A DNA stretch of 40,649 nucleotides from a virus. Location of the stretch: positions 1-40,649 of IMG/VR virus record IMGVR_UViG_3300003650_000022; one strand, written 5' to 3'. Below are positions 7,487 to 39,975 of the stretch, one piece after another; positions within the stretch are counted from its first letter, which is position 1; each line of letters begins with the position of its first letter. The notes beneath the pieces are model-generated. The model was not told the DNA's origin. It worked only from the letters and a program-made list of their open reading frames with translations, and searched no databases. A program made the translations under genes and the position numbers.

Positions 7487-7668
7487 ACCTGCTCCAGCAG
7501 CGCAGGGTCAATTTCATATCCCTCTGTGTAAGCATCTGTCTTTTTTTCCTTCTTGAAAGAGAGATTCTTGTTAAGGTTATTCTTATTAGTAGTTATTCTT
7601 GATTGGGTGTCAGGGGTGACACTAGGGTAGGTGAAATCACGGCTGGATTGTTGAAGTTTACAATGTAC
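7483..7668 (-). other. Open -1-frame extension of the winged-helix initiator gene, no start codon
   Basis: This frame is open for 61 codons, from just after a TAA at 7671 to a TGA at 7483, and has no ATG, GTG or TTG until its last codon (GTG). It cannot be translated independently. Its sequence (TTNKNNLNKNLSFKKEKK then EGYEIDPALLEQV) looks like a linker plus tail of a phage replication protein, and the next gene's GTG overlaps its stop as GTGA. It would join the upstream gene if one base were missing, or if the ribosome shifted -1 between 7668 and 7593. I found no canonical X-XXY-YYZ slippery heptamer there. Confidence 0.6.
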
Positions 7669-8060: not shown

Positions 8061-8759
8061 TTACATGCTCTTAAGGAACTCCTGCGCATGCTTAGCAGAA
8101 CACTTACGTAATTCTACTGCTCCATCACTAAAGCAAAAGACCACCGTAGCAGTACCTTCATCGGAATCCTGTTTGGTATCTGAGACTTCACCAAGTAACG
8201 CATTTATCAATTGAGGCTTAGTCAACTTACCAATCTCGATACCTTGAGCCTTAGCCTGTTGTTCAATTGTTGCGCGTGGCATCGCTTCATATTCTTTGCG
8301 AGTAATTAGTGGCAATGAATCATTTGCAGGAACAACCCTTGGTTCAACATCACTTATTAAAAATGGCGTAAGTCCTTGTGTTAAATCCAACACCCGAACG
8401 TTGGCTAAATCCATTAAGTTCATAACCTCTTTTTCACAATACTGTGCATCATCTTCGTCCCACAAATACAGCACTGTCGCATTGTTCTCTGATGCCCAAT
8501 TAATCAAATCGTGTTCGGGGTTCTTTGAAACAACTTCGGCGCTTGCTTTACGTGCAAGCATCCCAGGTGCTGTGCCATCATGGTATCCAACAAAGGACGC
8601 ATCATTGTCTAACAACCAGTCATACACACGACACACACCGTCAAGGCTGGTCTTCTGTAACTGAACATGAAATGAACGTGGGGTTGGCAAATCAGAGAGA
8701 GAACTCTCAATTACATTTGTCGAACTTGTGCCATTTCCTAATACCACATAGTGGTTCAT
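8061..8759 (-). CDS. Conserved phage hypothetical with SAP/Rho-N-like segment
   Basis: A 232-residue protein of unknown function, of a type I associate with actinobacteriophages. The N-terminal 140 residues look like a Rossmann-like alpha/beta domain: 'YVVLGNGTSS' at the start, then 'VYDWLLDNDASFVGYHDG', 'ATVLYLWDEDDA' and 'VRVLDLTQGL'. Residues about 155-190 ('YEAMPRATIEQQAKAQGI' then 'KLTKPQLINALLGE') resemble SAP or Rho N-terminal helix-extended-helix nucleic-acid binding. The C-terminal part has two small strands ('TVVFCFSDGAVELRKC'). It is the last gene before the hairpin at 8000-8058. It could sense a ligand and bind DNA, but there is no direct evidence. Confidence 0.65.
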   Translation of the reverse strand: MNHYVVLGNGTSSTNVIESSLSDLPTPRSFHVQLQKTSLDGVCRVYDWLLDNDASFVGYHDGTAPGMLARKASAEVVSKNPEHDLINWASENNATVLYLWDEDDAQYCEKEVMNLMDLANVRVLDLTQGLTPFLISDVEPRVVPANDSLPLITRKEYEAMPRATIEQQAKAQGIEIGKLTKPQLINALLGEVSDTKQDSDEGTATVVFCFSDGAVELRKCSAKHAQEFLKSM

Positions 8760-12816: not shown

Positions 12817-13047
12817 CTAACTGAGGGCACTTACGAGGGCTTCAAGGACTGTAATCCTTGCCGCCAAAACGCTCGTACCGTCTGTTTGTAGCCAAAAGAT
12901 ATTTGTTAAACTAGAGTCATCGGACGAGACTACGATTTGTGAATTGACTTCTGGAACAGCCCAAATGTTTCCCACTTGTTTAACCCTACCTATATATGAT
13001 ATAGATACTTCGGAAGCCGTGCCTATGTGATTTGTTACTATACGCAA
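12817..13047 (-). CDS. Small hypothetical between hub and wedge genes; start uncertain
   Basis: A 76-codon frame ending at 12817 in good register with the gap to the wedge gene. Its only upstream start is a TTG at 13047, giving a 62-nt overlap with the preceding gene. A GTG at 12972 has AGGTAGGG eight bases upstream and follows the preceding stop by 13 nt, giving a 51-residue product, which I think more likely. The sequence ('GNIWAVPEVNSQIVV' then a C-terminal 'RITVLEALVSAL') shows a beta-rich stretch and a short heptad-like C-terminal helix. I do not recognise the family. It could be a spike or hub adaptor or a C-terminal piece of the hub protein read in another frame. Confidence 0.45.
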   Translation of the reverse strand: MRIVTNHIGTASEVSISYIGRVKQVGNIWAVPEVNSQIVVSSDDSSLTNIFWLQTDGTSVLAARITVLEALVSALS

Positions 13048-14163: not shown

Positions 14164-15989
14164 TTCCCAGGTCTCCCATCCGTACCAATAGTAACAGGAT
14201 TCATAATAAATGGCCACCACTTTTTTGTATCGTCATGATAGAACAACGGAGTTGCTGGCTTAAAGAGAATAGACTTCTTCTCACTTATAGTTCCCACTAC
14301 ATCGCTACCAAACGAAGTGGTATTTCCAAAACCCTGTATTGTGAACAAAAACTCTGCGTCAGAAACTAAATAGTTTGTATTAGGGGTTGTCTTATACTTC
14401 GGAATATTCTGTAGTGAATCCAAATCTAGTAAAAACTCTTTGTAGTGTGTTTCATATACGACACTTCCAACGATACGCACCTCTCCTAAATACCACGTTT
14501 CGTCATCAGTATTAACCATACTAACTTGCTGGACACTCTTAGTAGCACCGTATTGTAATGCGCAAGTAAAGTTCCAACCTATCTTTTCAATCTTGTCGCT
14601 TTTCTTAATCTCAACTTTTATAACTATGGGTAACGTTCCTTTATTAGTTTTTTGTTTACTTGTTAATAAACCAAGTGGCCCGAGGTCTCCGAAGTCCGTG
14701 TCTAAGGACACATTGCTTCCCCAATGTTTAGTAAAGAGTATGTTGTAGTACTGTTGAAGAGTTACAAATCTAGGGTTGGTAGAAGTACCAGGGTAATACT
14801 CAGTGGCTTGTGTATGGCTACGCATCATAAGAGATGTGTCTGGACCTGTTTTTAAGTATGTATCATCGTCCCCATCAATACCACTCTTACCACTAGTCAC
14901 TTCAAAGGGCTTGAGTAAACGCCTATTAAACAACACACTAAAAGACTTAAGATTATATGTTAATGCATCCTGCCCACTCTTAGTATCAGCCGAAACTACC
15001 TTTTGGTCTTCTGACTCACTATCAGCCCAAGCGTTTAACGCATTAGTAAGGTACGCTTCTTTTCTGGCAAAGCCAGCATACAGCGCAGTCATACTAACGT
15101 TTACTTGACATACCGTGGGTATCATATTTTGATTAAACTTTTGAAAAGCAACGGCGCTACCTGTAACCAAACCCTCAATCATAAATACGTCTGAAAAGAC
15201 AACCCGTACAGGTAAAGGATTAATAAACGCAGAGTTACCAAAGTTTAATGTGTTGTCGATGTTGAACGTTGTGGCATTAAATGTTGTGTCGGGTGGTTTT
15301 AAGGGTAGAGCAGCCTTTTTATCTTTGTCATCTCCCGCAGCCTCGACCGAGGTTTGCCATGCTTTTATTGCGGCTGCTTGCCGTAGTTTGTCCTGGCTTT
15401 GAGAGAAGCCACTAACAAGGTCAAGTAGTTCTTTGGTTATTCCTTGACCAATAATGAGGTCAAACATTTGTAAGTCTGCCCAAACTCCGACTAAAGCGGG
15501 GTTTTTTATATTGCCCCCGATGTAGTTAGTGCCTGCATACAAAAACGTTCTATCCTTGTTCCACGTTGTAAAACCAGCATTATTTACTTCCATTTCACGA
15601 TTAAACGTCATTGTAAATGTAAAGACTGCCGTACCTGGAACTGGCTGTGTTAGGTTCGCTGGCGCTTGCAAAATTGGGTTAATTGCCCCAATACTTTGGG
15701 TGACACTGCGTTCTATATAGTCTGGGTTAAATTGAAAGTTTAAACGATAGTTACCCATCCTTGTTCCTGTGAACTTAGACGCTACATCCGTTAAAATACT
15801 GCGCATAAATCCGCGCACCATTTTAGTCTGGCCACCGCTAACACCTAAACCAATATTCTTAATTGCGTTACCAGGCCACGCAAAGGGTGGATTCTCTTTA
15901 CGCCAGTCACGTGCTTCCCCTAATTTGGCGTAGTTAGCAAAGTCGGCATTACCCTCTTTTAACAACTTGTTTGTGTTATTAACAACCAT
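14160..15989 (-). CDS. Tail/baseplate structural protein of unknown fold (609 aa)
   Basis: A 609-residue protein I do not recognise by motif. It lies directly after the tape measure gene with a one-base stop/start overlap and before the LysM-type protein, the position of tail-tip or baseplate components. Features visible: an N-terminal 'FNPDYIERSVTQSIGAINP' then 'PVPGTAVFTFTMTFNREMEVN', a beta-rich start. A poorly structured lysine/aspartate-rich stretch lies near residue 220 ('AAGDDKDKKAALPLKPPDTTF'). The C-terminal part ends 'LFYHDDTKKWWPFIMNPV'. Likely a structural component of the tail tip or baseplate, no enzymatic motif seen. Confidence 0.6.
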   Translation of the reverse strand: MVVNNTNKLLKEGNADFANYAKLGEARDWRKENPPFAWPGNAIKNIGLGVSGGQTKMVRGFMRSILTDVASKFTGTRMGNYRLNFQFNPDYIERSVTQSIGAINPILQAPANLTQPVPGTAVFTFTMTFNREMEVNNAGFTTWNKDRTFLYAGTNYIGGNIKNPALVGVWADLQMFDLIIGQGITKELLDLVSGFSQSQDKLRQAAAIKAWQTSVEAAGDDKDKKAALPLKPPDTTFNATTFNIDNTLNFGNSAFINPLPVRVVFSDVFMIEGLVTGSAVAFQKFNQNMIPTVCQVNVSMTALYAGFARKEAYLTNALNAWADSESEDQKVVSADTKSGQDALTYNLKSFSVLFNRRLLKPFEVTSGKSGIDGDDDTYLKTGPDTSLMMRSHTQATEYYPGTSTNPRFVTLQQYYNILFTKHWGSNVSLDTDFGDLGPLGLLTSKQKTNKGTLPIVIKVEIKKSDKIEKIGWNFTCALQYGATKSVQQVSMVNTDDETWYLGEVRIVGSVVYETHYKEFLLDLDSLQNIPKYKTTPNTNYLVSDAEFLFTIQGFGNTTSFGSDVVGTISEKKSILFKPATPLFYHDDTKKWWPFIMNPVTIGTDGRPGK

Positions 15990-18850
15990 TAGGAGTTCCT
16001 CATTACTGTAAGTTGGAGTTCACGTTCTAGTAACTTGCTTACTTCTTTAGCAAGTCTATGGGCGTCAATTGATTGAGACCCAGTAGATGTAATGTTGATA
16101 GTTGGATTAACATTAAACGTATTCTGTGCGCCCGCTTTTACTACTACGTTGCTACCAGTTTCTGCCACACGCCCACCACCACGAGGGGCCGAAGCACCAC
16201 CCATAACTTGGTCGTAGTTTGGGTCACCAGAGTTACCACCACTGGGGTAAAGTGATGATGTTGCAGTACCAGGAGGTAGGTCTATAGATTTAATTCTCCC
16301 AATGCCAGGCCATGAAACGGTACCTTCCACCAGACCTTGAAAACCATTATCGGCCCAAAACTTTTCTAATATGTTTTTAGTAACACTTTTTTGTTGTTCT
16401 GGAGTAGCCAAGGCGGGGGTAGCGGCATGCCGTTTACCACCACCACGGTCCCAATTGTACTGGTTCATATTAAAACCACCCATAAGGGTTCCATGACTAT
16501 TTACTACGGTACTGTTCCAAGAAGTAGTTTCTGAATTATGCAATGCTTCTAAATCGGCGTCAGTCCATTTTTGTTTAGTAAAGTATCCCCACCCACCATA
16601 TGATGGTGTTGTGCGGTATTTAAAACCTGGTGGAATTTGTCCTGGCTTAACTCCCACCTTGCCAGTAGTACCAGTAGTACTCGCATCGTCATGAACACCA
16701 ACAAAGTTTCCTACTGCTAATGTTGCCATTTTCCCAGCCGCACCAGCGCCACCAAAAGCACGCTTTTTAAAGGCGGTCATAGAACTTGCCAAAGTTAACC
16801 GTGATTGGTAGTTGCTTAAACTCCCCGCGCCACCTGCACTTGCTTTTTGTACCCCAAAAGAAGAGTTAACCTGTACCCCAGATTGAGACGTGGCGGAAGA
16901 ACTACCCGCAGTTTTTGCACTACCACCTGTATTAGTGTCCTTCATATTTGGCTGTATGTTGTCATCCATGCCAGCAGGTTGAACGTGATGCGCTTCATCA
17001 ATTGACCCGCCAGCATAGTTTTTAACTCCATATTTTGCAGCGTTTTGTGTAACCCATGCTAAATCACCGCCCATGTCTGCTGCCAAACCAATTTCGTGCA
17101 TGGAATGTCCTGGTGGCAGCATAGGATACACACCCTCATTCCTCCGCCAATACTTGTTATTCCAATGGTAGTCACCCTTACTTGGGTCATACTGTTCCGC
17201 CGAGATGGGCTTATACCGAGAATAGAATCCTGTACTTTGTTCGGCGGTTGACCGTCTACCCTGGTTTACCCAAATGTTGACACCCTCGTCCTTAGCACCA
17301 GCAATCATATTTGCTAAAGGTCCGCTTAAGCGAGGGTCTAATTGGGATACTAGTTGGTCACTATCACCCTTACCAGTTGGGCGTGTTGACCCAAATGAAC
17401 GTAAGGTTGCCCCACGAGGACTAGGGTCACCAAGCACTTCTCCTACAGCACTACCAGCCGCGTAGCCCGCCATAGCCCCCATAGGCCCACCAGCGAAAGC
17501 ACCAGCAAGACCACCAACAATGCCAAAGGCTGGTTTTATTAAGTCCCGCCAACCGCGAGTCTTAGTCCTCAAACCAATGATGTCGCGCAATGCATGTTCA
17601 AACTGACCCAACACTTTGTTTACGTTCTGTAAGTTCTTTTCCATCTGGGCGTAAGCAGAAGCCTGATCTTTATACATGTTTTCTTCACGCTGTACTCCCG
17701 TACGCTCAGTCTCCTCTGCCTGAGTAGCATAGTTCCCCTCAATACCCATCCTTTTGCGGTCGCCCATTTTAGAAGGGTCGTACATACCCGCTCCACCCTT
17801 TTTACCAAACTGAACATTTGACTTGGCATACTGCAATACCAAATCTTGCATTTCTGACCCAACCCCAGCCATCGCTAAGCGTTGACGAACAACTGAACCT
17901 GGTTGCATACTGCCCTCAAGCAGTTTTTCATTGTTTAATCCCAAGCGCTTAGTTAAGTCTTGTATAACCTGCATAGATGACTTTTGTTTTCCGCCAATGC
18001 CATATATGCCTGTACCCGTCATCATAAACATTTTATTGGCGACGTCTGGACTTGCCATGCTTTCAGTCATTCCAGTAATGTCTGAAGCGCTATATCCAAA
18101 GCCACCAAGGGTTCTGAGGGCTTCTATAGATGCAGCATTACCTTGTGCACTTAAGCCAGTACGGGCCTCCATTGACAATAGGCTGCTAATTCCGCCCGCA
18201 CCAAGCCTGTACTTGGTAAGTGGCTGACGCATATCACTAATTACTTGCGCTTGTGATCTGCCAGTGGTTTGCTGGAGCATTACGCTCAGTTTGTCGGCTG
18301 ATAATGCGTATGCCTTATTGCGGTCAACGCGACTATCTATGGCCCCGATGGTCGCCTCAGCAGCCTGTAACCCCGCTTGAACCCAAGGGTTGCCCATCAT
18401 GCCTTGAGCCTTCCCAAACAAGCCGCCACGCATCTTAGAAGCCGTACCAGCCCCGCCACCAGCCCCGCCAGGGCCTCCACTCACGCCAAGTGCCTTAAGG
18501 ATGCGCTCTGCCTCGCCAACGCCCCCCACAGAGGCTGTAGCAGCGGCTGGCATGCCTTTGGATAGGTCCATGTACCCAGAGCCACCCTTACCACTTACCT
18601 TGCCCATAGCAGTGGCTACTTTGTTAAGTTCACCTGTGAGGGCCTTAGCCTCTGCAACCAAACCTTTAAAGTTTACTTTAATCTTTTTAGTGTTTTCGCT
18701 TAACTTGTTTAATTCACTGTTAAGACCTTTGACCATCTGTAAGTCAATGTTTAGGCGAGAGTTGGCAGAGGCACCGCCTACTGCACCAGCGGCACGGCCC
18801 TCTTCGGCGCTACCACCAAAGGCACCACCCCCTAGATTTTGCTCAACCAT
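15989..18850 (-). CDS. Tape measure protein with embedded M15 peptidase and Rpf-like transglycosylase segments
   Basis: A 953-residue tape measure protein: long, with Ala/Gly-rich and coiled-coil-like N-terminal regions and a small transmembrane-like stretch ('GIVGGLAGAFAGGPMGAMAGYAAG', about 448-470). Two cell-wall enzyme segments are visible. Residues about 505-625 look like an M15 (VanY/D-Ala-D-Ala) peptidase: 'GHSMHEIGLAADM' gives the HxxxGxAxD zinc motif and 'EAHHVQP' the second His. Residues about 758-835 resemble Rpf/transglycosylases: 'WTDADLEALHNSETTSWN' with a likely catalytic Glu, then 'GGFNMNQYNWDRGGG', 'ATPALATPEQQKSV'. Muralytic motifs in actinophage tape measures are known (mycobacteriophage TM4). 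The start has GGAGG seven bases upstream. Confidence 0.85.
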   Translation of the reverse strand: MVEQNLGGGAFGGSAEEGRAAGAVGGASANSRLNIDLQMVKGLNSELNKLSENTKKIKVNFKGLVAEAKALTGELNKVATAMGKVSGKGGSGYMDLSKGMPAAATASVGGVGEAERILKALGVSGGPGGAGGGAGTASKMRGGLFGKAQGMMGNPWVQAGLQAAEATIGAIDSRVDRNKAYALSADKLSVMLQQTTGRSQAQVISDMRQPLTKYRLGAGGISSLLSMEARTGLSAQGNAASIEALRTLGGFGYSASDITGMTESMASPDVANKMFMMTGTGIYGIGGKQKSSMQVIQDLTKRLGLNNEKLLEGSMQPGSVVRQRLAMAGVGSEMQDLVLQYAKSNVQFGKKGGAGMYDPSKMGDRKRMGIEGNYATQAEETERTGVQREENMYKDQASAYAQMEKNLQNVNKVLGQFEHALRDIIGLRTKTRGWRDLIKPAFGIVGGLAGAFAGGPMGAMAGYAAGSAVGEVLGDPSPRGATLRSFGSTRPTGKGDSDQLVSQLDPRLSGPLANMIAGAKDEGVNIWVNQGRRSTAEQSTGFYSRYKPISAEQYDPSKGDYHWNNKYWRRNEGVYPMLPPGHSMHEIGLAADMGGDLAWVTQNAAKYGVKNYAGGSIDEAHHVQPAGMDDNIQPNMKDTNTGGSAKTAGSSSATSQSGVQVNSSFGVQKASAGGAGSLSNYQSRLTLASSMTAFKKRAFGGAGAAGKMATLAVGNFVGVHDDASTTGTTGKVGVKPGQIPPGFKYRTTPSYGGWGYFTKQKWTDADLEALHNSETTSWNSTVVNSHGTLMGGFNMNQYNWDRGGGKRHAATPALATPEQQKSVTKNILEKFWADNGFQGLVEGTVSWPGIGRIKSIDLPPGTATSSLYPSGGNSGDPNYDQVMGGASAPRGGGRVAETGSNVVVKAGAQNTFNVNPTINITSTGSQSIDAHRLAKEVSKLLERELQLTVMRNS

Positions 18851-18853
18851 TTC

Positions 18854-19003
18854 CTAGCCTCCCGCAGAGTTTCTCCAACGAGCCATACTTACCCAGTATG
18901 ACCTTTGTCGGACTGTCATAGCCTTAATATCTGTAAGGCTAAAACCTCTATACGTAGAGGCAATCGCTTCGTATTCCCAGTAAGTCTGAATCAGTCTATC
19001 CAA
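18854..19003 (-). CDS. Tail assembly chaperone extension, reached by +1 (or -2) frameshift
   Basis: An open frame of about 50 codons after the C-terminus of the gp26-like gene, in the +1 (equivalently -2) frame. It reads 'LDRLIQTYWEYEAIASTYRG' then 'TDIKAMTVRQRSYWVSMARW' and ends TAG at 18854, three bases before the tape measure ATG. The upstream stop in this frame is at about 19024, and no start with a ribosome-binding site exists, so it needs recoding. Overlapping frames just before the tape measure gene are typical of G/GT-type tail assembly chaperones. The slip window is 'CTTTTATTTGGATAG' (19010-18996). The product would be the gp26-like protein plus this tail. Confidence 0.65.
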   Translation of the reverse strand: MDRLIQTYWEYEAIASTYRGFSLTDIKAMTVRQRSYWVSMARWRNSAGG

Positions 19004-19799
19004 ATAAAAGTGCGACCCAATCTAGGGCTAGATTAATAATAGCATTACAGTGGGCACATTGGGTTTTCACCTCTTCCATACGAGGCCCTGGTTGTGCAGA
19101 AAAGAGCGCCTTGACTAATTTGTTTCTGTCGGCCAAGGATAACCCCCTTGCCCACGCCTCTGGATTAATCTTGTCTTTTGGACCCAAGATAGCGCAACGA
19201 GCCAGCATCATGGTATTTTGTTCCGCAGTATTCTTAGACCTTTTGGCGACCCACTGACTATCCCCACCAGTTGGGTAGTTTAGGGTAATAACTGCCTTGT
19301 TCTTAAGGGTTACAGACAGAGGCTCTGTTAAGTTACCCTTAGCATCCTCAATGGGGAAGTCTTCATCTAGGTCAACTTGAATGCTATTTTGTTTTTCACA
19401 TTCTTTACAAGTTACATCAAACTCACGGTAACGACCATATGTGGCTTTAATGATTCCAAGAAATAGTAAATCCCTATCCCCAATAATTAAGTCATCAATA
19501 ACGCTTGGGTGTTCTTTAATAGAAATATTACCAATATTAATAACCGCTAATTTCAGTAAGTAAGACATGTATTCTGAATACGTTATATTCGTCTTAACGT
19601 CATAAGAGGCTAATGCTTCTTCATCTGTGCCCGTTAATTCACGAACAACCGAGTCTGTCTGCCATTCGTTAGGTAGGTTAGAAAACACGCCACGTAACAA
19701 TGTTACAGAAGCACTCCCAGGCATGCTTATTGTGGGTGCTGGGTCGTCACCGATAATACTAGTAGCGTCGGTTGCTTGGGCGGCAAGTTCTGTAGACAT
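18996..19799 (-). CDS. T4 gp26-like zinc-ribbon tail protein / tail assembly chaperone
   Basis: A 267-residue protein of the T4 gp26-type (baseplate hub/tail assembly) family: 'VVRELTGTDEEALASYD', then 'LLKLAVINIGN', then 'IGDRDLLFLGIIKATYGRYREF'. It has two Cys pairs that would bind zinc: CKEC (about 131-134) and CAHC (about 249-252). 'RSKNTAEQNTMMLARCAI' and 'LSLADRNKLVKALFSAQ' are the conserved late part. In Gram-positive phages a protein of this type sits directly before the tape measure and makes a frameshifted longer form. Here the C-terminal 'LDWVALLFG' stop is followed by an open +1 frame that supports this. It folds the tape measure during tail assembly. Confidence 0.75.
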   Translation of the reverse strand: MSTELAAQATDATSIIGDDPAPTISMPGSASVTLLRGVFSNLPNEWQTDSVVRELTGTDEEALASYDVKTNITYSEYMSYLLKLAVINIGNISIKEHPSVIDDLIIGDRDLLFLGIIKATYGRYREFDVTCKECEKQNSIQVDLDEDFPIEDAKGNLTEPLSVTLKNKAVITLNYPTGGDSQWVAKRSKNTAEQNTMMLARCAILGPKDKINPEAWARGLSLADRNKLVKALFSAQPGPRMEEVKTQCAHCNAIINLALDWVALLFG

Positions 19800-19835
19800 G
19801 TACTGCTCCTCGTGTTGTTACTTACTTTTTATTTA

Positions 19836-20492
19836 TTAAAGTGCTGCTGTTTGCCCTGTTAGTTCCAGAATCTGCGTATCATTAAAGGCAATTTGAAAAC
19901 CCTCATGGTGAATGGTCATTTGCTGAATAAGTATTCCGTTATCGCCAGCATTAAGACCATTCATGGCAAACACGCCAGGCCAACAATTAAATAGTTTAAA
20001 AGCCAGTCTAACGTTACCAGGCTTTATCGCCCCAGAATTTGATGCGAGGTCTTGGTCAAGGTACTGAACCCCAGTACGTGTGTATGGGTGGTCGTAAACT
20101 AATCCCGTAATGGTACAACGGTAATCACTAGAGTCCGCGCCAGCCGTTGCCAAACCCTTAGAACCATAGGCAACTCCTTGGTTCCACGTATGGATAAATT
20201 GCTGCCACGCCCACATACCACCATCAGATGAGTTAGCCGACCCAGCCATGGCAAAGGCACCACGTGAGAAAGACACTGGTGGGAAATCGGATTGACCCAC
20301 CATTTTGTGTGGATGTGTGTTCATTCCACCCTCACGGTAAGCAATCAATTCGTTAGTAACGCTCAAACCAGACATTTCAGCAAAACCAAGTTGTGGAAGG
20401 TTAGAACCAAAACTAGCAAATATACCCGATGGTTCAATAATAACTTTAAATTTAAAGTTACGTAGCGGGTCGGTGCGTTGTGCAAGTGCCAT
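19836..20492 (-). CDS. Tail tube protein (gp19-like)
   Basis: A 218-residue protein that matches phage tail tube proteins of the T4 gp19 family. 'RTDPLRNFKFKVIIEPSGIF' and 'FAEMSGLSVTNELIAYREGG' are the typical N-terminus, followed by 'RGAF...WQQFIHTWNQG' and, near the end, 'IKPGNVRLAFKLFNCWPGVF' and 'IQQMTIHHEGFQIA'. It forms the inner tube through which DNA passes. It lies right after the sheath and before the gp26-like/tape measure genes, the standard order. Confidence 0.9.
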   Translation of the reverse strand: MALAQRTDPLRNFKFKVIIEPSGIFASFGSNLPQLGFAEMSGLSVTNELIAYREGGMNTHPHKMVGQSDFPPVSFSRGAFAMAGSANSSDGGMWAWQQFIHTWNQGVAYGSKGLATAGADSSDYRCTITGLVYDHPYTRTGVQYLDQDLASNSGAIKPGNVRLAFKLFNCWPGVFAMNGLNAGDNGILIQQMTIHHEGFQIAFNDTQILELTGQTAAL

Positions 20493-20501
20493 TATTACTC
20501 C

Positions 20502-21818
20502 TTAGACGGTTTCATTAAATTCTGCGCTACCAATAAATTGGCTGACGTTGATGACAATAAACTCTGCGGGTGTCTGCAATGCGACACCAATTTCAATGTG
20601 TACTTCACCGTTTTCTATTGTTTGTGACGTATTGTTTGTGCTGTTACAGGTAATGTAGTAGGCCTCTGACGAGGTACGACCCTTGAGTCCGCCCGAACTC
20701 CAAAAGGCACTTAGGAACTTACTTAGGCGAGTATTGATGCTCCCCCACAAACCATCGTTGTTAGGCTCAAACACAGCAAAGTTTGTAATAAGTTTTGCTT
20801 GAGACTTGACATAGTTAAGGCTGCGCCGTACAGGGATGTACTTAGTAATATCAGTTTTCTTAAGGGTACGAGCACCGTACACAATGACGCCTGCGCCAGG
20901 AATGGCCTTCAGTGTATTGATGTGGGCATCATACAGAGTGCCCTGCTCAACTTCAGTAAACGATGTCTCTAGTCCAAGGGCACCGCGCAAGTCATACGCA
21001 AAACCAGCAGCCGCCTTAGCGACAGTACGCTCTGCCTCTACACGAGAGTACAGGCCAAGGAGTGCACCACCTGGGGCAGTTGTACGCATAGCCGACGAAC
21101 CGCTCTTGGATGGGTCAACCATGATTAGTTTTGGATAGTACACGGCAGCATACGATGAGGCGCTATAGCCACTAATGCTCGTAAGGGCATCAGCACCAGA
21201 CGTAACCGTTACTGGGTCAATTACCAAGAAACGATTGCCAGCATTTTCACAATATGTAATAGCCGTATTAACAACGGATGCTGTGGTCATATTAACCATG
21301 TTAATAACAAGTTCTTCGTCAACGCTTACAAACCGCGCTACAGCGTTATTCCACTCAGTATTGGTTTCACCAACATTCGCCGCCGAACCATCCGAACCAT
21401 CAGTAAGCGCAGCGTTTGTTACGACGGTAGCAACGTAAACACTTGTGTAAGCACTAACAGAGGCAACCCGAATGTAGGTTGAATAGGTATTAATAACAGT
21501 GCCAATGTACCTATTGGAATCTGGGTCTAGACTGAGTTCACCCCAGCGCTCCACTTCTACAGTGTCATTTTTTACAGTTAAAACAAATGTTGGCAGGTCG
21601 CCCGTTACCAAGCCAGCCGAAATAGATACTGTAAGGTCATTGCCCCACTCACCCTTGTTTTCCGCATTTACACGAAAAGCGGTAGTAGGAGAACCGTCAA
21701 TACTAAAGGTAACGTTTTCACCAGCGACAGACGCCGCAGTTGTCGTAGAAGCGTTGTAGACACGGGAAACATATGCGTCACGCCCACCATTTGCAAAGAA
21801 ATGGCGAAGCCACCGCCC
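20502..21818 (-). pseudogene. Tail sheath protein, N-terminal region missing
   Basis: This open frame of about 438 codons encodes most of a contractile-tail sheath. The visible N-terminal 'RHFFANGGRDAYVSRVYNA' is a segment that lies about 90 residues into other sheath proteins, followed by 'NKGEWGNDLTVSI'. The C-terminal domain is intact ('TAPGGALLGLYSRVEAER', 'YIPVRRSLNYVKSQAK', 'HIEIGVALQTPAEFIVINVSQ'). The frame begins just after a TAG (21821-21819) and has no ATG, GTG or TTG before a TTG at 21611. The part that normally starts the protein, including the strand that links neighbouring subunits, is absent. The preceding gene's frame runs across this point, so a deletion or assembly error is likely. 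If real, contraction would be impaired. Confidence 0.75.
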
Positions 21819-22449
21819 CTACGCCAACCACCTGTGCTGACGTAATTTCTGCGGTCATTTGGAGAGTGTAAACCTTACGAAAGATGCGTTTGCGGTAGCC
21901 CGCTTCAGGGTCAAGCAGGTCAGCCGTTGTCCAGTCCAAGAGGTCTAAACGACGGATGGTGTCATCAGCGGGGATGTTGATGTACCCGCGCCTAAAAGGT
22001 ATAATGTCAGTAAGCATTTGGGCGGATAGTTGCCTGTCGTGCAAGGCAGAACGAGCAAAGGTTGAAACCTGATAAAGAAGGTCAACTGGGACATACTCGT
22101 TACTCACAAGGTATTGATAGTCATTTTTATTAGTTATATAAGAAAAGTCAGCAGACGTGCTAGGACGATAGTCCATACGGTCGGCTCTATTGTCCCGAAG
22201 TGGTGGTGCCCCAGCCGCATCCGTACGATAGTACAGGGTGCTCTCAGAATGCTGTCTGTTCCTTGCGTGAACAATGTCAATGTGCTCTAAGGTTATAAAT
22301 GGGTAGGACCGCTCTGTTTCACCCTCGGGATACCTATAGAACACCTGTACTGGGCGGGCGTTATCTTTATCATCAGAAACAGTCATGGCGCTAAACAACA
22401 GTTTAAGAGCCTGGTCTTCTGCCAGCAGTAAGCCAACGCGATTACTCAT
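21778..22449 (-). CDS. Tail terminator/completion-like neck protein, C-terminus possibly altered
   Basis: A 223-residue protein in the neck cluster. The 'PEGETERSYPFITLEHIDI' and 'RKVYTLQMTAEI' stretches are typical of tail terminator/completion proteins in contractile phages, which cap the tube at the head end. Up to about residue 207 the protein looks complete. After 'MTAEI' it ends 'TSAQVVGVGAVASPFLCKWWA', which is read in a frame that overlaps the start of the sheath frame, so the last 20 residues may be a junction artefact. It overlaps the preceding gene by 4 nt (ATGA). Confidence 0.55.
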   Translation of the reverse strand: MSNRVGLLLAEDQALKLLFSAMTVSDDKDNARPVQVFYRYPEGETERSYPFITLEHIDIVHARNRQHSESTLYYRTDAAGAPPLRDNRADRMDYRPSTSADFSYITNKNDYQYLVSNEYVPVDLLYQVSTFARSALHDRQLSAQMLTDIIPFRRGYINIPADDTIRRLDLLDWTTADLLDPEAGYRKRIFRKVYTLQMTAEITSAQVVGVGAVASPFLCKWWA

Positions 22450-22871
22450 TTGTAGCGTTTTACCAATTCTTTGTCTACCAAGTCAGCAATCTTTTTACCC
22501 AAGTCTGTTTCACGAGATTTGGCAAAAGTACGAAGCAGGGGACTAGGAGCATTTTTAGTAGGTACACCGTACTCTAAGTCCTTAGACTTTTGGGCATTCT
22601 CTGGGGCGTCCTCGGTTCCATATACAAACATAGTTTGCTGGTTATCAAAACGAACGCTAAGACCATCTGCAAGCCCAGACCACTCAGAGTTAGTATCGGC
22701 ATTCTCACGAAGAGCAGTTTGTTCCTCATACGTGGCTTGCTTAATTGCTTTGCGCAAAGCCTTTGGGTACTCGTCAGCAAGAAACTCAGCATAGTCCAAT
22801 ACGGCTAGTCCGCCAGAAATAAAGGACGGCTTAGAAGTTCTGACAGCGTACGGAGACGGGTTACTATCCAT
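22446..22871 (-). CDS. Neck protein, HK97 gp10-like (tail completion candidate)
   Basis: A 141-residue mixed alpha/beta protein with 'LDYAEFLADEYPKALRKAIK' and 'LENG'-type pattern 'DLEYGVPTKNAPSPLLRTF' plus a C-terminal 'IADLVDKELVKRY'. This is the general look of HK97 gp10-like proteins that lie between head and tail: an N-terminal helix, a beta core with a 'tyGxxxxPA.P.lr' element and a helical end. It overlaps the terminator-like gene by four bases. Its call rests on position and this pattern; no motif is decisive. Confidence 0.5.
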   Translation of the reverse strand: MDSNPSPYAVRTSKPSFISGGLAVLDYAEFLADEYPKALRKAIKQATYEEQTALRENADTNSEWSGLADGLSVRFDNQQTMFVYGTEDAPENAQKSKDLEYGVPTKNAPSPLLRTFAKSRETDLGKKIADLVDKELVKRYK

Positions 22872-22933
22872 GTTGCTCCAAGACTTCTAGGCGTTTAGAC
22901 CCTCTGGCGCACGCCAAAGTTAGATTAAGTTTA

Positions 22934-23470
22934 TCAGATATTTGGAAACGCTGAAGGCCAAGGAAGCGTGTGTATAGACGAGAAGGTAGGAGATGTATCA
23001 AAAGAAAACTCCTGCTGAATATATACCTCTAAGCCCTCAACGGTTACGATAACGTCATCTTTTAGACGACCACGAACTTTATAAGAAGTTACTGTAAAGT
23101 AACGCCCGTCGTACATAAACATATCATTTAAATGTTTTCTATACTCATGAGGTTCAGATAAGCCTGCATTCCGAAAGTCCTCAATAGACGCTACAAAGTT
23201 AGCAACTTCAACTGGTTGCCGACCTTCTGGAATAGCACGTTTTTGGTCTTCAGTTTCAGTAATCATTAAAACAGGTATAACTAGGCCGTTGCCATACTTA
23301 CGTCCGCTAGGTCCAGCAATACCCTCGTTGTATACATCGTCATAATATGAACCAGCACTGGCGCTGGCTGCAAACGGTGTAAATTCATAGTAAATGATGG
23401 TTTCGCCCACCTTACGAAAGTACTCCCTATAGTGCTTTCGTATTTGACTTACCTCTACACGCGAGTCCAT
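22934..23470 (-). CDS. Neck/head-closure protein candidate
   Basis: A 178-residue protein of unknown exact family. It has 'IRKHYREYFRKVGETIIYYEF' at the N-terminus and beta-strand pairs ('RYFTVTSYKVRGRLKDDVIV', 'VTVEGLEVYIQQEF'). Similar-sized proteins between the connector and the tail completion protein are head-closure stoppers (SPP1 gp16-like). It shares the base at 23470 with the previous gene, so it is translated with it. A 62-nt spacer follows it. The call comes from gene order and a beta-rich fold. Confidence 0.5.
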   Translation of the reverse strand: MDSRVEVSQIRKHYREYFRKVGETIIYYEFTPFAASASAGSYYDDVYNEGIAGPSGRKYGNGLVIPVLMITETEDQKRAIPEGRQPVEVANFVASIEDFRNAGLSEPHEYRKHLNDMFMYDGRYFTVTSYKVRGRLKDDVIVTVEGLEVYIQQEFSFDTSPTFSSIHTLPWPSAFPNI

Positions 23471-24279
23471 TAGAACAATCCAGTAGTGTTAGCCACCCCA
23501 ATAGCAGGTTGGGTGTCTACAAGAACTTCAACACGCGGGTCGTCTCCCATGTCTGCAATTGCAATATCACCAGTACCACGCTCTGGAAAGACACGCTTAA
23601 TTGGGCCGTAATCACCAAGTTCTTTGTGGACATAAATAGGAATGTAACGATTTGTTGTGCGCGACACGCGACTAAGGGTAAACACTTCAATACGGTCAAG
23701 TCCAATATTTAGGGCACGCGCCCGCTTATCATAGGCATTCATCCAGTAGTCCAATAGCGTTTGGATATTACGAGCGCGTTGGCTTCCAGGAATGTGCACC
23801 GACTCAGAGGTCATTACGTCAATGTCACGACTGTATTCACTAAATAAAGACCAAAGGGTTTCAATGAGCGTAGCCATCCCAATGGTGTCCAATAGGATAT
23901 CGGACATGTTTTCTAGGTCAACCTGTAGGTTGTACACGTGGTTTTCAACGGCACGTTTTGCGTAGTACTCTAAGTCTGCGGGCAAAACCCACTCATAGTA
24001 ATAACCCTCAACCATGATTTTGCTATTTGCGTCAGGGGTAGACGCCAAACGCACCAAGCCATTACGTGCGTCTAAACTAAATGCGGATGCCGCCATTTCT
24101 ACAGGATTAGACGATGTGTAAGTAGCAATATAAAAAGAGTCTACGTCAATATTGGGGTGACCCAATTCATAGGTTCTACCAGCGGCATCAAAGGCAACCT
24201 GAAAGTACTTTGGAAAATCGCGCAAGTAAGTACGCGCATTTTTAGTAACGTCATCAAGAATGCTGGTTGGAATAAGCAT
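23470..24279 (-). CDS. Head-tail connector/adaptor-like protein (269 aa)
   Basis: A 269-residue protein whose position is that of an adaptor that attaches to the portal. It starts ATG 24279 with AAAGGA upstream. It has 'LDDVTKNARTYLRDFPKYFQ', a helical N-terminal region, then 'AFSLDARNGLVRLASTPD', 'VMVEGYYYEWV', 'YYAKRAVENHVYNLQVDLENM', and a late 'RNIQTLLDYWMNAYDKRARALNIGL'. The long helical central part resembles connector proteins. Family not certain. It follows the 50-residue gene and precedes the stopper candidate. Confidence 0.55.
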   Translation of the reverse strand: MLIPTSILDDVTKNARTYLRDFPKYFQVAFDAAGRTYELGHPNIDVDSFYIATYTSSNPVEMAASAFSLDARNGLVRLASTPDANSKIMVEGYYYEWVLPADLEYYAKRAVENHVYNLQVDLENMSDILLDTIGMATLIETLWSLFSEYSRDIDVMTSESVHIPGSQRARNIQTLLDYWMNAYDKRARALNIGLDRIEVFTLSRVSRTTNRYIPIYVHKELGDYGPIKRVFPERGTGDIAIADMGDDPRVEVLVDTQPAIGVANTTGLF

Positions 24280-24291
24280 AGTAGTAGTTTA

Positions 24292-24444
24292 CTATCCTTT
24301 TGAGTCAGCGCCTGCGATAGTATCCAAATCTGGTGCGTTTACCTGTGGTTGTTGCTCGCGGTACCTTTTAGCAGTTACAGTTCGCACACGAGTAATATCA
24401 GCCAACGAACCCGTTGGACGCGGGAGTGGTCGTACAAGTGTCAC
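24292..24444 (-). CDS. Small hypothetical, GTG start coupled by GTGA
   Basis: A 50-residue gene that is easy to miss. GTG 24444 overlaps the TGA of the fibre-like gene as GTGA. The sequence 'VTLVRPLPRPTGSLADITRV' then 'YREQQPQVNAPDLDTI' ends TAG at 24292, 13 bases before the next gene. It is proline-rich and basic at the N-terminus, with no domain I know. The exact overlap with the preceding stop and the clean fit between two neighbours make it a credible gene, possibly a small structural or assembly protein. Confidence 0.65.
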   Translation of the reverse strand: MTLVRPLPRPTGSLADITRVRTVTAKRYREQQPQVNAPDLDTIAGADSKG

Positions 24445-25244
24445 GAAAAGACTTGGCCAGCAAGTACTATTGTTCCCTCTTCACCAGTAATAGCGGTGGT
24501 GGGTGCGGTTGTTGACGCCGCAGTAATGCGACCCTTAGAGTCAACCGTGATATTGGTCAGAGTGTACGACCCCGCTGACACTGCGGTATCGGCAAGTGTT
24601 ATAGAACCCGTAGAGTTGGACGTAGCATCCCCAGACAACTTACCAAACAAATAGGTTGCTATACGAGTAACCGCAGATTTGCGAATAGTGCCAGCACCAC
24701 CGTCGTCAATAATGATTAAATCGGCATTAGTGATAGCCGCACCAATATCAACACCACCAGCGATATCAATTGACGAAATTGCTACAATAGAAGCAACCGA
24801 ATCAGGGGAAAATGCTCTTTTATCAATAATATCATTAGCGACAATTGCTTCGTTTGCCCTACGAAGAACCGCCGCAAGGACAACATCTGCTGCTGTGATT
24901 GCAGGAAAAACTGGGTTGGTAGAACTGGCAATTCCAGTAATAGTAACGATGGTTACAGCACTTGCTGCATACCGCGCAACAACAAGGTCAAACCTATTGG
25001 ACGACGCATTAGGTGACGATAGGGCATACCCACCATCTGCTGAGAGTGCATAATCAGTGCCTTCATAGGCAATTGAGCCAGAGGCAACGGCAACGGTATT
25101 ACCAGATACTGCCGTGACGGCTGCATCACTTACAACACCTTTTCGCCTATTGCCTAGTATTTCAAAGTCAATACGGTCTGGCTCTGCTTGGTCTAATGTT
25201 GACTTATCGGTGTCTGGTGCATTAGGAATTGTAAAGCCAGCCAT
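24441..25244 (-). CDS. Head fibre- or tail fibre-like protein with beta-helix features
   Basis: A 267-residue, Ala/Ser/Thr/Val-rich, low-aromatic protein. The N-terminal 'IPNAPDTDKSTLDQAEPDRI' and 'NRRKGVVSDAAVTAVSGNTV' look like a base domain. Near the C-terminus 'SYTLTNITVDSKGRITAAST' is a motif repeated in phage fibres and needles (VDSKGRIT). The protein sits with the capsid and neck genes, not with the baseplate, so a head fibre or decoration protein is at least as likely as a tail fibre. It is probably a trimeric beta-rich fibre. I found no enzyme motif. Confidence 0.55.
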   Translation of the reverse strand: MAGFTIPNAPDTDKSTLDQAEPDRIDFEILGNRRKGVVSDAAVTAVSGNTVAVASGSIAYEGTDYALSADGGYALSSPNASSNRFDLVVARYAASAVTIVTITGIASSTNPVFPAITAADVVLAAVLRRANEAIVANDIIDKRAFSPDSVASIVAISSIDIAGGVDIGAAITNADLIIIDDGGAGTIRKSAVTRIATYLFGKLSGDATSNSTGSITLADTAVSAGSYTLTNITVDSKGRITAASTTAPTTAITGEEGTIVLAGQVFS

Positions 25245-25252
25245 ATTACCTC

Positions 25253-25483
25253 TTACAGAGTATCGTAAATGTTACTATTCTTCTTTAGATAGGCATAGAG
25301 GTCTTTTGGAATATTAAAAGACTTACCATCCACAAAATTATACACCATGTTGCCGTAGTACATAGTCCAAGTTCCTTTAATACGGGCTTGAACCAAGTTG
25401 CTACCAACAGCGGGTACGGGTGTCGCAATTTCTGGAACCTCTTCAACAACAGTTTCAGCGAATTGATTTGCTTTTCTTGGCAT
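25253..25483 (-). CDS. Small head-associated hypothetical (76 aa)
   Basis: A 76-residue protein encoded just after the major capsid gene, with a 100-nt spacer containing hairpins. 'ARIKGTWTMYYGNMVYNFVDG' then 'FNIPKDLYAYLKKN' look like a small beta domain with a helical end. AAGGAG precedes the ATG. Small proteins directly downstream of capsid genes are often decoration or head-stabilising proteins; this role is an inference from position. Confidence 0.55.
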   Translation of the reverse strand: MPRKANQFAETVVEEVPEIATPVPAVGSNLVQARIKGTWTMYYGNMVYNFVDGKSFNIPKDLYAYLKKNSNIYDTL

Positions 25484-25502
25484 GTGTTTCTCCTTATATT
25501 GG

Positions 25503-25549
25503 ACCCATTAGACGGTAATGGGTGGCTACATGTTCAGTGTAACCACCCA
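25503..25549 (-). promoter_or_regulatory. Two overlapping, mutually exclusive hairpins after the capsid gene
   Basis: Hairpin A is ACCCATTA/TAATGGGT (25503-25510 with 25516-25523), perfect 8 bp with a 5-nt loop. Hairpin B is TGGGTGG/CCACCCA (25519-25525 with 25543-25549). They share bases 25519-25523, so only one can form at a time. In the minus-strand transcript B forms first and A lies nearer the next gene. They lie between the major capsid gene and the 76-residue gene. This could be an attenuator or 3'-end protector that sets the ratio of capsid to later products. Confidence 0.5.
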
Positions 25550-25583
25550 GTGCCAAATTACTACAACTTGCTTTCTAAATATC

Positions 25584-26681
25584 TTAGAAACTGTCGTCGA
25601 TTGCCCCACCCTTGGTATTGATTAGCACACGGGATTCTGCGGTAATGACACCGAAGCCCCAGATGGAGTACCACGAGAGACCGTGCTCACGACCGAAGTC
25701 AATGACACCACCGTCACGGAGTTCAACTGGCAAGGCAATTGCCTGACCGAATGCGTTGTCACCGATCATCAAGGCGCTGTATGAATCCGCTGTTGGGTCT
25801 TCGTTACCAGACTCACCAGGACTCAGGTCAACAACATCCGTTGTTGCTTGGCCCTTGAGGACCTGCGTGGTCTCAATGAACACTACGTCGTAGATACGAC
25901 CGATTTCACCGAGCATGAAGTTGCCTGGGGCTGCGTACTTGGTTACTTCAATGAATTCTGGCCAGTCACGGAGCGAGCGGCTCTGCTTTGGGTGAACGAA
26001 GCAAACGTAAGTATCGCCAAGGCGTGGGATGTTCAGGCTGGCGAGAATCTCGACAGCATCTTTGATTGTGGCTGGGGACATATAGCCAGGAGCCGAAGCC
26101 GAACCCGCTGCTGAGTACTCGTACGGAGCAATGGAACCACGTGTGGAACCATTTGTCTTACGACCGAAGACTACTGATGGGGCTACAGGAGTGCCGCCGC
26201 CAAATGGTACACCAGTGGAGTACAGCGTGTTACGCGCTTGGATGTCCATGGACTGTGCCATGTGACGACCGAGCAAACGGCTGGACGAAGCCATCACGTC
26301 ATCGAACGAAGCGTTCAAGAGAAGTTCAGTTACTGCAACTGCCTTACCCTGTTCCTTAACGGTAATGGAAATCTGTGAAGCGGACAGAGCAGTTGGCTCC
26401 ATACGTACACCTTCAGTCAACTCAGCGCCTGTGTCATTTGACACCTCTAGGTTGGTGTAACGCATAAAGTTAACGGTGAGACCTGGCATGACACCAAGTT
26501 CTGTCTTCTTTACGGCAAATTGCTCAAAGCGGAGAATTGGCATAGCCTGAAACAAAATCTCTTTTGACCAAATAGTTTGAATTGCTGGAGAGAGTGTTGA
26601 ATCACTTGAGTAACCTGTGGTCGTGATTGAACCAAGACTTGCTCCTGTAATTGCTCCACCTGCTGGGCCTGGGATTGCCAT
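25584..26681 (-). CDS. Major capsid protein, N4-gp56 family type
   Basis: A 365-residue capsid protein. The central pattern 'RFEQFAVKKTELGVMPGLTV' then 'FMRYTNLEVSNDTGAELTEG' and 'ISITVKEQGKAVAVTELLLNA' is that of N4-gp56-type major capsid proteins, which have an HK97-like fold. Later 'YVCFVHPKQSRSLRDWPEF' and 'YSALMIGDNAFGQAIALP' also fit. No cleavage site or prohead protease is obvious, so it probably assembles on the separate scaffold encoded upstream. It has GGAGGAA before its ATG. A short hairpin (26723-26735) lies in the spacer. Confidence 0.88.
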   Translation of the reverse strand: MAIPGPAGGAITGASLGSITTTGYSSDSTLSPAIQTIWSKEILFQAMPILRFEQFAVKKTELGVMPGLTVNFMRYTNLEVSNDTGAELTEGVRMEPTALSASQISITVKEQGKAVAVTELLLNASFDDVMASSSRLLGRHMAQSMDIQARNTLYSTGVPFGGGTPVAPSVVFGRKTNGSTRGSIAPYEYSAAGSASAPGYMSPATIKDAVEILASLNIPRLGDTYVCFVHPKQSRSLRDWPEFIEVTKYAAPGNFMLGEIGRIYDVVFIETTQVLKGQATTDVVDLSPGESGNEDPTADSYSALMIGDNAFGQAIALPVELRDGGVIDFGREHGLSWYSIWGFGVITAESRVLINTKGGAIDDSF

Positions 26682-26722
26682 AAATGTATTCCTCCATGGG
26701 AACTAGTTAATTGTTATGTAAT

Positions 26723-26735
26723 AGTCTAGCAGACT
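26723..26735 (-). promoter_or_regulatory. Short hairpin between scaffold and capsid genes
   Basis: AGTCT (26723-26727) and AGACT (26731-26735) form a 5-bp stem with a 3-nt loop immediately after the scaffold stop. No clear U-tract follows, so it is a weak terminator or an mRNA-processing or stability element that could raise capsid expression relative to scaffold. Confidence 0.3.
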
Positions 26736-27533
26736 TTAAAAACGCCCTCTAGATGTTTTCGCATTCAATAGCCTGTCACGCATTTTGGTGTACTGTTCCA
26801 TGGACATATTACGGATATCTTCCGCACTCAACGTTTGCTGCTCCATTTGGGTCTCCATTGGCCCAACAGGTGGGGCTGTTACACCGACACCCTTTATGCG
26901 CTGCTGCGTTCCCGCAGTAGCACGTTGGACACTTTCTAATATAGCAGAACTAGCGACCTTAAACCGACTAATGGAGGACTCAACCTCTTCCAGGGTATTA
27001 CCAGAAATCATCCCTAAAAGTTCTGGAATGATGGATTCCTGCTCTTCTTGCATACGGCGACCAATGTACGTCTGTAGTTCCTGGTGCGCCCGCTCCTTTT
27101 CAAGGAGTGCTGCCTGTGCTTGGCGGTCTTTATCAATCTCTTCCAAACGCCCACGCCACTCGCTTTCAACGGTATTGAGCCTTGCGGTGAAGTCAGTCTC
27201 TTGCTTTAAGAGCAGTTCCTTTGCAGAAAGTTCTTCAAATTCACGCTGTTTGAGAAGTTTGGCTTCTTTTTTAGCACTCTCTTCGGCCTGCTTAATGACA
27301 ACATCCCGCTCTTGCTGAAGAACAGCAAGTTGTTCCTCAAGGCCTTTTACACGTAGGTCAGAGTTTTCAATACGACCGTACATCTTGTCTTTTTCTTGTT
27401 GGCGGGCTTTTTCAATCTCTTCCTCAGAAAAGACCCTTGGCTTAGGACCACGGGTAAGGCTTTCAGCCTCAGCCTCAAATGCCTCAATCGCTATTGCAGG
27501 AATAGTAACTTCGTCAGTACCTTGCTTTGCCAT
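26736..27533 (-). CDS. Capsid scaffold protein
   Basis: A 265-residue, highly charged, helical protein between portal and capsid genes, where the scaffold gene usually lies. Residues about 40-155 are rich in Glu/Lys/Gln/Arg with heptad-like spacing ('EEIEKARQQEKDKMYGRIEN', 'AKKEAKLLKQREFEELSAKE'), so a long coiled coil. The C-terminus is basic ('TKMRDRLLNAKTSRGRF'), which fits a capsid-binding end. No protease motif is visible, so it is a pure scaffold, not a protease-scaffold fusion. Confidence 0.75.
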   Translation of the reverse strand: MAKQGTDEVTIPAIAIEAFEAEAESLTRGPKPRVFSEEEIEKARQQEKDKMYGRIENSDLRVKGLEEQLAVLQQERDVVIKQAEESAKKEAKLLKQREFEELSAKELLLKQETDFTARLNTVESEWRGRLEEIDKDRQAQAALLEKERAHQELQTYIGRRMQEEQESIIPELLGMISGNTLEEVESSISRFKVASSAILESVQRATAGTQQRIKGVGVTAPPVGPMETQMEQQTLSAEDIRNMSMEQYTKMRDRLLNAKTSRGRF

Positions 27534-27582
27534 AATATTACCTCGTTAGTTTGGCGGATAATTACTTATTTAATGTGACGTA

Positions 27583-31642: not shown

Positions 31643-31700
31643 GTTCTACTCCAATTGTTGTGTGCCCTTACTGTAGCCTACAGATTGTAAGCATACCACC

Positions 31701-32237
31701 TTACCCCGAAAAGGCTGCTACCGCTACGGGTAAACTATCTCCACAAACGTAGCGTATATGCCACGGTTCGGAAGGGACAACCTCCCATGAAAATCCAAAT
31801 TCCTTTACATTAGCGATTAGCCAAGCAAGCCTTTTGGGTTCCGAAGCGGAATGGACATCAACAGCAATACCAAGATTATGTTGGCTCTTTCCTGGGGTGG
31901 CTAACATAGCCATGCCTTTTTTTAGATACCAAGTTTTTCCTTCAAATGATTTGGTGCTTGTTCCTGCAATCGGTTCCAGTACGTAGCGCTGTTTAAAGCC
32001 CGCCAGTTGTGCTGCGTAACTGCGATAGCAGTCGCCTGATGACGTGGGTTTGAGTATAATTCCTTCTGATTTGGCTTTGGCAACCATTGCTGCCCATGCT
32101 TGAGCGGCAATGTGGTGGAGTCTTCCTCCGCCAACAGCGGGGACGAGGAGATGTTCAGGCAATTTTCCAGGGATAACTCCTTTCAGGTCAGAGGGTAGTT
32201 TAACAGGAACAATATAATCCCAAGCAACCTTTGGCAT
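31701..32237 (-). CDS. Endolysin, M15 (VanY-type) D-Ala-D-Ala carboxypeptidase
   Basis: A 178-residue peptidase with the M15B zinc motif SxHxxGxAxD: 'KSQHNLGIAVD' gives H120 and D127, and the ExxH motif 'EPWH' gives E157 and H160. This is the layout of VanY/L-alanyl-D-glutamate or D-Ala-D-Ala peptidases used as phage endolysins. No signal peptide is visible, so export would need the holin encoded next to it at 32241. It cleaves the peptide part of peptidoglycan. A related domain is present in the tape measure protein. Confidence 0.88.
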   Translation of the reverse strand: MPKVAWDYIVPVKLPSDLKGVIPGKLPEHLLVPAVGGGRLHHIAAQAWAAMVAKAKSEGIILKPTSSGDCYRSYAAQLAGFKQRYVLEPIAGTSTKSFEGKTWYLKKGMAMLATPGKSQHNLGIAVDVHSASEPKRLAWLIANVKEFGFSWEVVPSEPWHIRYVCGDSLPVAVAAFSG

Positions 32238-36682: not shown

Positions 36683-36766
36683 CAAATTCCTCCTAGTTGT
36701 GGTCGTTACCCTCGTATGTTACCACCATGTGAGGGCAATACGTAATCGTACCATGTCCGTATTTGT

Positions 36767-36788
36767 GGACACTGTACGGACACTGTAC
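36767..36788. repeat. Tandem 11-bp repeat GGACACTGTAC
   Basis: Two head-to-tail copies of GGACACTGTAC (36767-36777 and 36778-36788). The repeat lies close upstream of the first gene of the late operon. Such tandem motifs may be regulator or initiator binding sites. No protein is known to bind it. Confidence 0.6.
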
Positions 36789-37098
36789 GGCCACCCGCAA
36801 ATCAGGACATCGCTCTGATTATGAGCAATATCAATCACAATGTCATAATGTGTACGGACGCACTCATGACGCAGTGAGGTGTTTTTACCAGACAACTGAG
36901 CGATTTATTGCCGTTTCACTGAGCAGTTTGTGGTGTAACAATAGGTCCTATTAAAGCCCTTACGGGGCTAAAAGCGGGCTAACAGTTACAAATGCAACTA
37001 TGGAGACAGTAGTTGCGTCTATAGATTTAAACGCGACAACATGCGAGGTTCTCGTATCTAAATGACTTACCCAAAGTATTACATTCCCATACTTTACG

Positions 37099-39331: not shown

Positions 39332-39975
39332 ACAATTTCATCCTTATAGTACGTATCATGTAGGTACTTCTCAAGGCTGGGGCATGCTTTTGCTATTTTG
39401 TCCCAAACTTCACTTCGTTCCTCTAGCCTCTTAAAACTTCGAGCATACACATCTGCGTACTTTACCTTTTGTTCGCATTGGCCTAGAGAGATGGCAACGT
39501 CATCCAAAAGTTTGTAATTCATTCCTGCGGATATCCATGTTAAACCACCGCGTTCTGCTGGCTGAAATGTTTTTGTTTTGATGTTCGCAAGAAGTTGCAT
39601 TTGCGAAGAGGGGTCTTGGATAGTTGGTATATTATTATTTTTATTAGATAGGTCCAACCAGTAGGGGGAGTCGGTACGGACGCTTAATGCATAGTGTAGT
39701 CGAATAAACCCAACAAAATCATCAAACCTTAATTTTACAGCCCTGTTATAAATATCCCTGTCCCATTGGGTTACACTACCCCTGTCTAATGCCCTAATAA
39801 GTTCCCACAAGAATACATGAATGGTATATAGTCCATTGCTTTCTAGCGGCTCAATAAACCCTGCTGACAGACCTATAGCAACAACATTTTTAACCCAGGT
39901 GCGCTCATGTATTCCAATACGCATCTTAATGTGCGTTTTCACCAACAACAGCGCTACATACGGTGGCACGTACAT
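39328..39975 (-). pseudogene. Tryptophan halogenase, C-terminal fragment (out of frame)
   Basis: A fragment of about 198 meaningful residues. 'RTWVKNVVAIGLSAGFIEPL' and then 'ESNGLYTIHVFLW' is the late region of PrnA-type tryptophan halogenases, including the Glu of the EPLES motif (E346 in PrnA). 'FDDFVGFIRLHYALSVRTDS' then 'PYWL' follows as in the family. The frame differs by one base from the N-terminal piece, and the middle about 115-120 residues, including the WxWxIP motif, are missing. Start codons available are ATG 39975 and 39924. The broken state means no active enzyme is expected as sequenced. Confidence 0.8.

What the first reader, a model, noticed from the sequence alone, without database searches (positions are those of the whole stretch)
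21776..21850. Tail sheath gene lacks its N-terminal part and start codon
The sheath frame opens only after TAG 21821-21819 and begins with 'RHFFANGGRDAYVSRV', a segment about 90 residues into other sheath proteins. No ATG, GTG or TTG occurs before TTG 21611, and the neck gene runs straight across the junction and ends in an atypical tail. The N-terminal strand that links neighbouring sheath subunits is missing. This is either a deletion of about 270-300 bp, a defective phage, a split gene, or an assembly error.
Basis: partly seen in the sequence, partly recalled or inferred. Interest (0 to 1): 0.8.

Follow-up and report, generated by a model that had tools for sequence, protein, structure and literature searches.

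The report
Phage sheath gene cut by missing DNA
The tail-sheath gene of this metagenome phage looks beheaded because 350 bases are missing from this particular assembled record; a 99.8% identical record from another metagenome has the complete gene, and the same window has about four other holes of the same sort, so this is most likely an assembly artefact and not a new kind of sheath.

Summary
The sheath frame (20502-21818, minus strand) has no upstream start, and the neck gene reads across the junction. The cause is now pinned down. A near-identical IMG/VR contig (L042/L001; 99.84% and 99.76% identical on the two sides) holds 350 extra bases exactly between window 21805 and 21804. They encode the last 25 neck residues, a 69-bp spacer with a ribosome-binding site, and sheath residues 1-68 of an ordinary 501-aa sheath protein. 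All 34 relatives whose contigs reach this point have that N-terminal segment. No other viral record holds the junction sequence.

The hole is not unique within the record. The window has similar frame-breaking losses in an HTH gene (~7.6 kb), two adjoining baseplate-region genes (~13.0 kb), a VanY endolysin (~31.7 kb, less certain) and a VirX1-like halogenase (~39.9 kb), while the same genes in relatives are almost all intact. Conversely L042 lacks 223 bp inside a tail gene where the window is intact. Private, repeat-free deletions scattered over essential genes, with otherwise mostly silent substitutions, point to sequence lost in metagenome assembly. A truly defective phage population is the main rival. 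Raw reads would settle it. Ordinary; low interest.

The parts
20502..21803 (-). Tail sheath gene remnant: residues 69-501 of a 501-aa sheath protein; N-terminal 68 residues, start codon and RBS absent
   Evidence: phrog_23 and phrog_17610 tail sheath hits; 100% aa identity to L001 4797-6302 residues 69-501
21804..21805 (-). Deletion junction: 350 bp present in L042/L001 are absent here; no base of overlap between the two flanks
   Evidence: blastn and base-by-base extension against L001; L042
21778..22449 (-). Neck gene upstream of the sheath; true product 240 aa, here 215 true residues followed by 8 residues read out of frame from sheath DNA
18396..18618 (-). 223 bp present in the window but missing from sister record L042, where the loss frameshifts the large tail gene 15989-18850
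7605..7632 (-). Second lesion: HTH protein gene loses ~70 bp with a frameshift (115 aa against a median of 169.5 aa)
13019..13026 (-). Third lesion: ~380 bp missing; the first 297 of 390 residues of a baseplate-region protein run into the C-terminal part of the next gene in another frame
31643..31710 (-). Fourth, less certain lesion: VanY endolysin ends after 178 aa where relatives have 266-274; ~220 bp absent before the next gene
39926..39975 (-). Fifth lesion: flavin-dependent tryptophan halogenase (VirX1-like) split in two frames with ~120-130 residues missing between them
   Evidence: Pfam PF04820 positions 1-186 then 304-410; VirX1 4-193 then 325-469; frames

Best explanation
The window is a metagenome-assembled fragment of a contractile-tailed phage with an ordinary, complete sheath gene in nature. 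In this record 350 bp across the neck/sheath boundary were lost when the sequence was assembled, most likely because two contig ends flanking an unassembled stretch were joined without a run of Ns. The same happened at about four other places in this record, and independently at one place in its sister record. In the real phage the sheath is made from its own ATG and RBS as a 501-aa protein; no unusual sheath mechanism is needed. Shown: the 350-bp difference, intact relatives, further lesions, reciprocal lesion. Inferred: that the loss arose in assembly and not in the virus, and that a scaffold gap was the route.
For: L042/L001 is 99.84% identical over 3186 bp downstream and 99.76% over 6138 bp upstream, with exactly 350 extra bp at the junction. 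In all 34 relatives whose contigs reach this point, the 52-81 residues upstream of the matched start are open and of sheath type. No other viral record holds the junction 26-mer, and the six records matching the right flank are all intact there. Further frame-breaking losses at ~7.6, 13.0, 31.7 and 39.9 kb in a set of genes whose ~570 copies in relatives are nearly all full length (rough Fisher p ~1e-5 on hand-counted lesions). L042 has its own private 223-bp frameshifting deletion. The remaining sheath gene is identical to L042 at every base, and the 20 substitutions in the 9.3 kb around the junction are mostly synonymous, so these genes are under constraint and not decaying. No repeat or overlap at the junction.
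Against: No raw reads were available, so assembly loss is inferred. None of the fetched loci contains N, so it could not be shown directly that gaps were closed up. For the lesions other than the sheath one only more distant relatives were available; the VanY one could be a genuine domain loss.
Confidence: 0.88

Rival explanations
1. A real deletion: a defective phage genome, or a decaying prophage, that has lost sheath, neck, baseplate, endolysin and halogenase segments and persists only with helper virus or in a host chromosome.
For: The deletion is clean at base level; several genes are hit, as in a decaying element.
Against: The rest of the genome is intact and under purifying selection, with zero substitutions in the surviving sheath gene against L042; genes other than the lesioned ones are near full length; no other record has the junction; the sister record shows a different private deletion, as expected of assembly noise.
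Confidence: 0.09
2. The short sheath is functional: translation starts at TTG 21611 or by coupling from the neck gene, giving a sheath without the N-terminal arm.
For: The reading frame downstream is open and identical to an intact sheath.
Against: All 34 relatives reaching this point keep the N-terminal segment. [quoted passage not shown] A TTG 21611 start would also remove residues 69-132. The neck gene is damaged at the same junction.
Confidence: 0.01
3. Split gene: the N-terminal part lies elsewhere in the genome (inversion, trans-splicing or intein-like arrangement).
For: The record is only a fragment of a phage whose relatives' contigs reach 87-94 kb, so a displaced piece could lie outside it.
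Against: No copy of the 350-bp piece elsewhere in the window; in the 99.8% identical record it sits in place; the neck gene's end is missing at the same point.
Confidence: 0.01

Closest known systems
Tail sheath protein of IMGVR_UViG_3300003653_000029 (L001/L042), 501 aa
   Same: Residues 69-501 identical at every base; same neighbours in the same order
   Different: Keeps residues 1-68, start codon, RBS and the end of the neck gene
Contractile tail sheath family (phrog_23 / phrog_17610; Pfam PF17482 C-terminal domain and PF04984 subtilisin-like domain; Streptomyces phage BRock sheath)
   Same: Domain matches over the surviving part (PF04984 below its cut-off); 33% identity to the BRock sheath over residues 33-428
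   Different: The N-terminal segment, which links neighbouring subunits in characterised sheaths (PMC10457771), is absent from this record only
Misassembly in viral metagenome contigs (e.g. PMC11727651)
   Same: Erroneous joins in phage contigs are a recognised problem, with co-occurring strains named as one challenge
   Different: Here the error type is a set of short losses, inferred by comparison and without read depth

Membership tests
Contractile phage tail sheath protein | Sheath C-terminal domain (PF17482) and sheath profile match | tested here: met
   PF17482 E=6.3e-9 above cut-off; phrog_17610 E=1.2e-40, phrog_23 E=2.7e-32
Contractile phage tail sheath protein | Gene order neck - sheath - tube | tested here: met
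   Neck-position gene 21778-22449 upstream (named by position only: no family hit), tail tube phrog_4542 at 19836-20492 downstream; same order in L001
Contractile phage tail sheath protein | N-terminal segment with start codon | tested here: not met
   Absent in the window, present in L001 and in all other relatives that reach it
Assembly artefact (sequence lost at a join) | Near-identical independent record intact at the site | tested here: met
   L042, 350 bp longer exactly at 21805|21804
Assembly artefact (sequence lost at a join) | Several unrelated lesions of the same kind in one record, rare in relatives | tested here: met
   Lesions at ~7.6, 13.0, 21.8, 31.7 and 39.9 kb
Assembly artefact (sequence lost at a join) | Read depth drop or clipped reads at the join | not testable with these tools
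   Raw reads not held
Decaying prophage or defective phage | Relaxed selection, stops and frameshifts in many genes | tested here: not met
   Differences from L042 in the 9.3 kb around the junction are mostly synonymous; surviving sheath identical; other genes near full length

The most novel reading that the evidence does not exclude
The sampled virus population really contains a deletion-bearing, helper-dependent form of this phage in which several structural genes are broken.
Probability: 0.06. Interest if true: 0.4.

Novelty: not a real feature. Interest (0 to 1): 0.08.

Why it matters
It matters mainly as a caution: this IMG/VR record seems to carry about five silent losses of ~70-390 bp, so split, fused or short genes in it should not be read as biology without an intact relative or raw reads. 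Were the deletion real it would point to defective phage genomes in the environment.

Tried and rejected
Repeat- or microhomology-mediated deletion: the two flanks share no base at the junction. Chimeric join of two strains at the window junction: mismatch rates on the two sides are alike, 0.24% and 0.16%. A jump in divergence beyond L042's own lesion first suggested a chimera, but the 22 substitutions cluster at 17711-17831, not at the junction, so they look like a recombination patch. Displaced N-terminus: no trace in the window. Apparent short genes in L058 and L015 turned out to align over their whole length. The pattern scan for relatives of the halogenase found none, and for the gene at 9031-10944 only 53-61% identical relatives. 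Left-flank 28-mer in the 84,980-species bacterial and archaeal genome collection: no match, so no sign of a prophage there.

Full report
OBSERVATION. The window is a 40,649-base IMG/VR virus record. On the minus strand the frame 21818->20502 encodes a tail sheath protein (phrog_17610 E=1.2e-40, phrog_23 E=2.7e-32; PF17482 E=6.3e-9). It opens after TAG 21821-21819 and its first ATG/GTG/TTG is TTG 21611. The preceding gene, 21778-22449, runs across the start of the sheath frame and ends in 'SPFLCKWWA'.

CAUSE. A scan of viral contigs with the sheath protein returned 37 loci. One, L001 (whole contig L042, IMGVR_UViG_3300003653_000029, 10,987 bp), is the same phage: 99.76% identical over window 21805-27942 and 99.84% over 18619-21804. 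Between these two blocks L001 has 350 bp that the window lacks, exactly at 21805|21804, with no base shared at the two edges. In L001 the neck gene is 240 aa (4005-4727) and the sheath 501 aa (4797-6302). The missing piece therefore holds 78 bp of neck gene with its stop, 69 bp of spacer with an AAGGAG ribosome-binding site, and 203 bp of sheath (68 codons less one base). The window's true sheath DNA starts at residue H69, and the residues GRWLR before it are neck DNA read out of frame. In all 34 loci that reach this point the stretch upstream of the match is open and sheath-like (MAYxxPGVYVxExxF...YKxxFGD...), mostly 63-72 residues back to an ATG; three of them run off the contig end before the ATG. 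No other viral record holds the window's junction 26-mer; the six records that share the right-hand 23-mer, five of them ~72% relatives and one L042, are all intact there.

ASSEMBLY OR BIOLOGY? I compared the window's genes with their orthologues in the relatives. Of 42 window ORFs, most lie close to the relatives' median length, and in about 570 orthologous ORFs away from contig ends only a few are short. The window, in contrast, has further losses: an HTH gene switching frame at ~7605-7632 with ~70 bp missing; a 390-aa baseplate-region gene cut after residue 297 at 13019 and running into the C-terminal part of the next gene, with ~380 bp missing; a VanY endolysin cut to 178 aa with ~220 bp missing; and a tryptophan halogenase in two frames, matching Pfam positions 1-186 and 304-410 and VirX1 residues 4-193 and 325-469. 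Conversely, sister record L042 lacks the 223 bp of window 18396-18618 inside the large tail gene 15989-18850, which breaks the frame there. A rough Fisher test on hand-counted lesions gives p ~1e-5; the counts are not independent, so this is only a guide.

The surviving sheath gene is identical to L042 at every base, and the 20 substitutions in the 9.3 kb around the junction are mostly synonymous. These genes are under purifying selection and are not decaying. Deletions private to single assembled records, in different places in two 99.8% identical records, without repeats, and hitting genes a contractile phage needs, are best explained as sequence lost in assembly, for example contig ends joined over an unassembled gap without Ns. 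None of the fetched loci contains an N, which fits but does not prove that route.

MECHANISM. In nature the gene most likely makes an ordinary 501-aa sheath protein from its own ATG. In phage XM1 the sheath N-terminus pairs with the C-terminus of a neighbouring subunit (PMC10457771), so a sheath without it would not be expected to assemble normally (inference).

VERDICT. A true observation with an ordinary cause: a 350-bp loss in this record, most likely an assembly artefact (0.88), less likely a real defective genome (0.09). Raw reads, or the original scaffold with its gap marks, would decide.

Noticed in passing
39328-40525 (-): VirX1-like flavin-dependent tryptophan halogenase in two frames; homologues in cyanophages (~42% identity), none found by the IMG/VR pattern scan. 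An intact copy is probably present in the real phage.
   Followed up: partly
36690-38910: About 2.2 kb without any long ORF on either strand, next to tRNA-Pro(tgg) and tRNA-Trp(cca) at 38754-38911; no other Rfam match.
   Followed up: partly
17711-17831 (-): 22 substitutions, several changing amino acids, packed into 121 bp of a large tail gene between two otherwise ~99.8% identical records: a local recombination patch or fast-changing segment.
   Followed up: no
31643-32237 (-): VanY-type endolysin lacking the C-terminal domain that relatives carry; may be another lesion or a real domain loss.
   Followed up: partly
L074:2219-2777: Relative with a frame change in the orthologue of window gene 8064-8759; another possible assembly lesion.
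   Followed up: no
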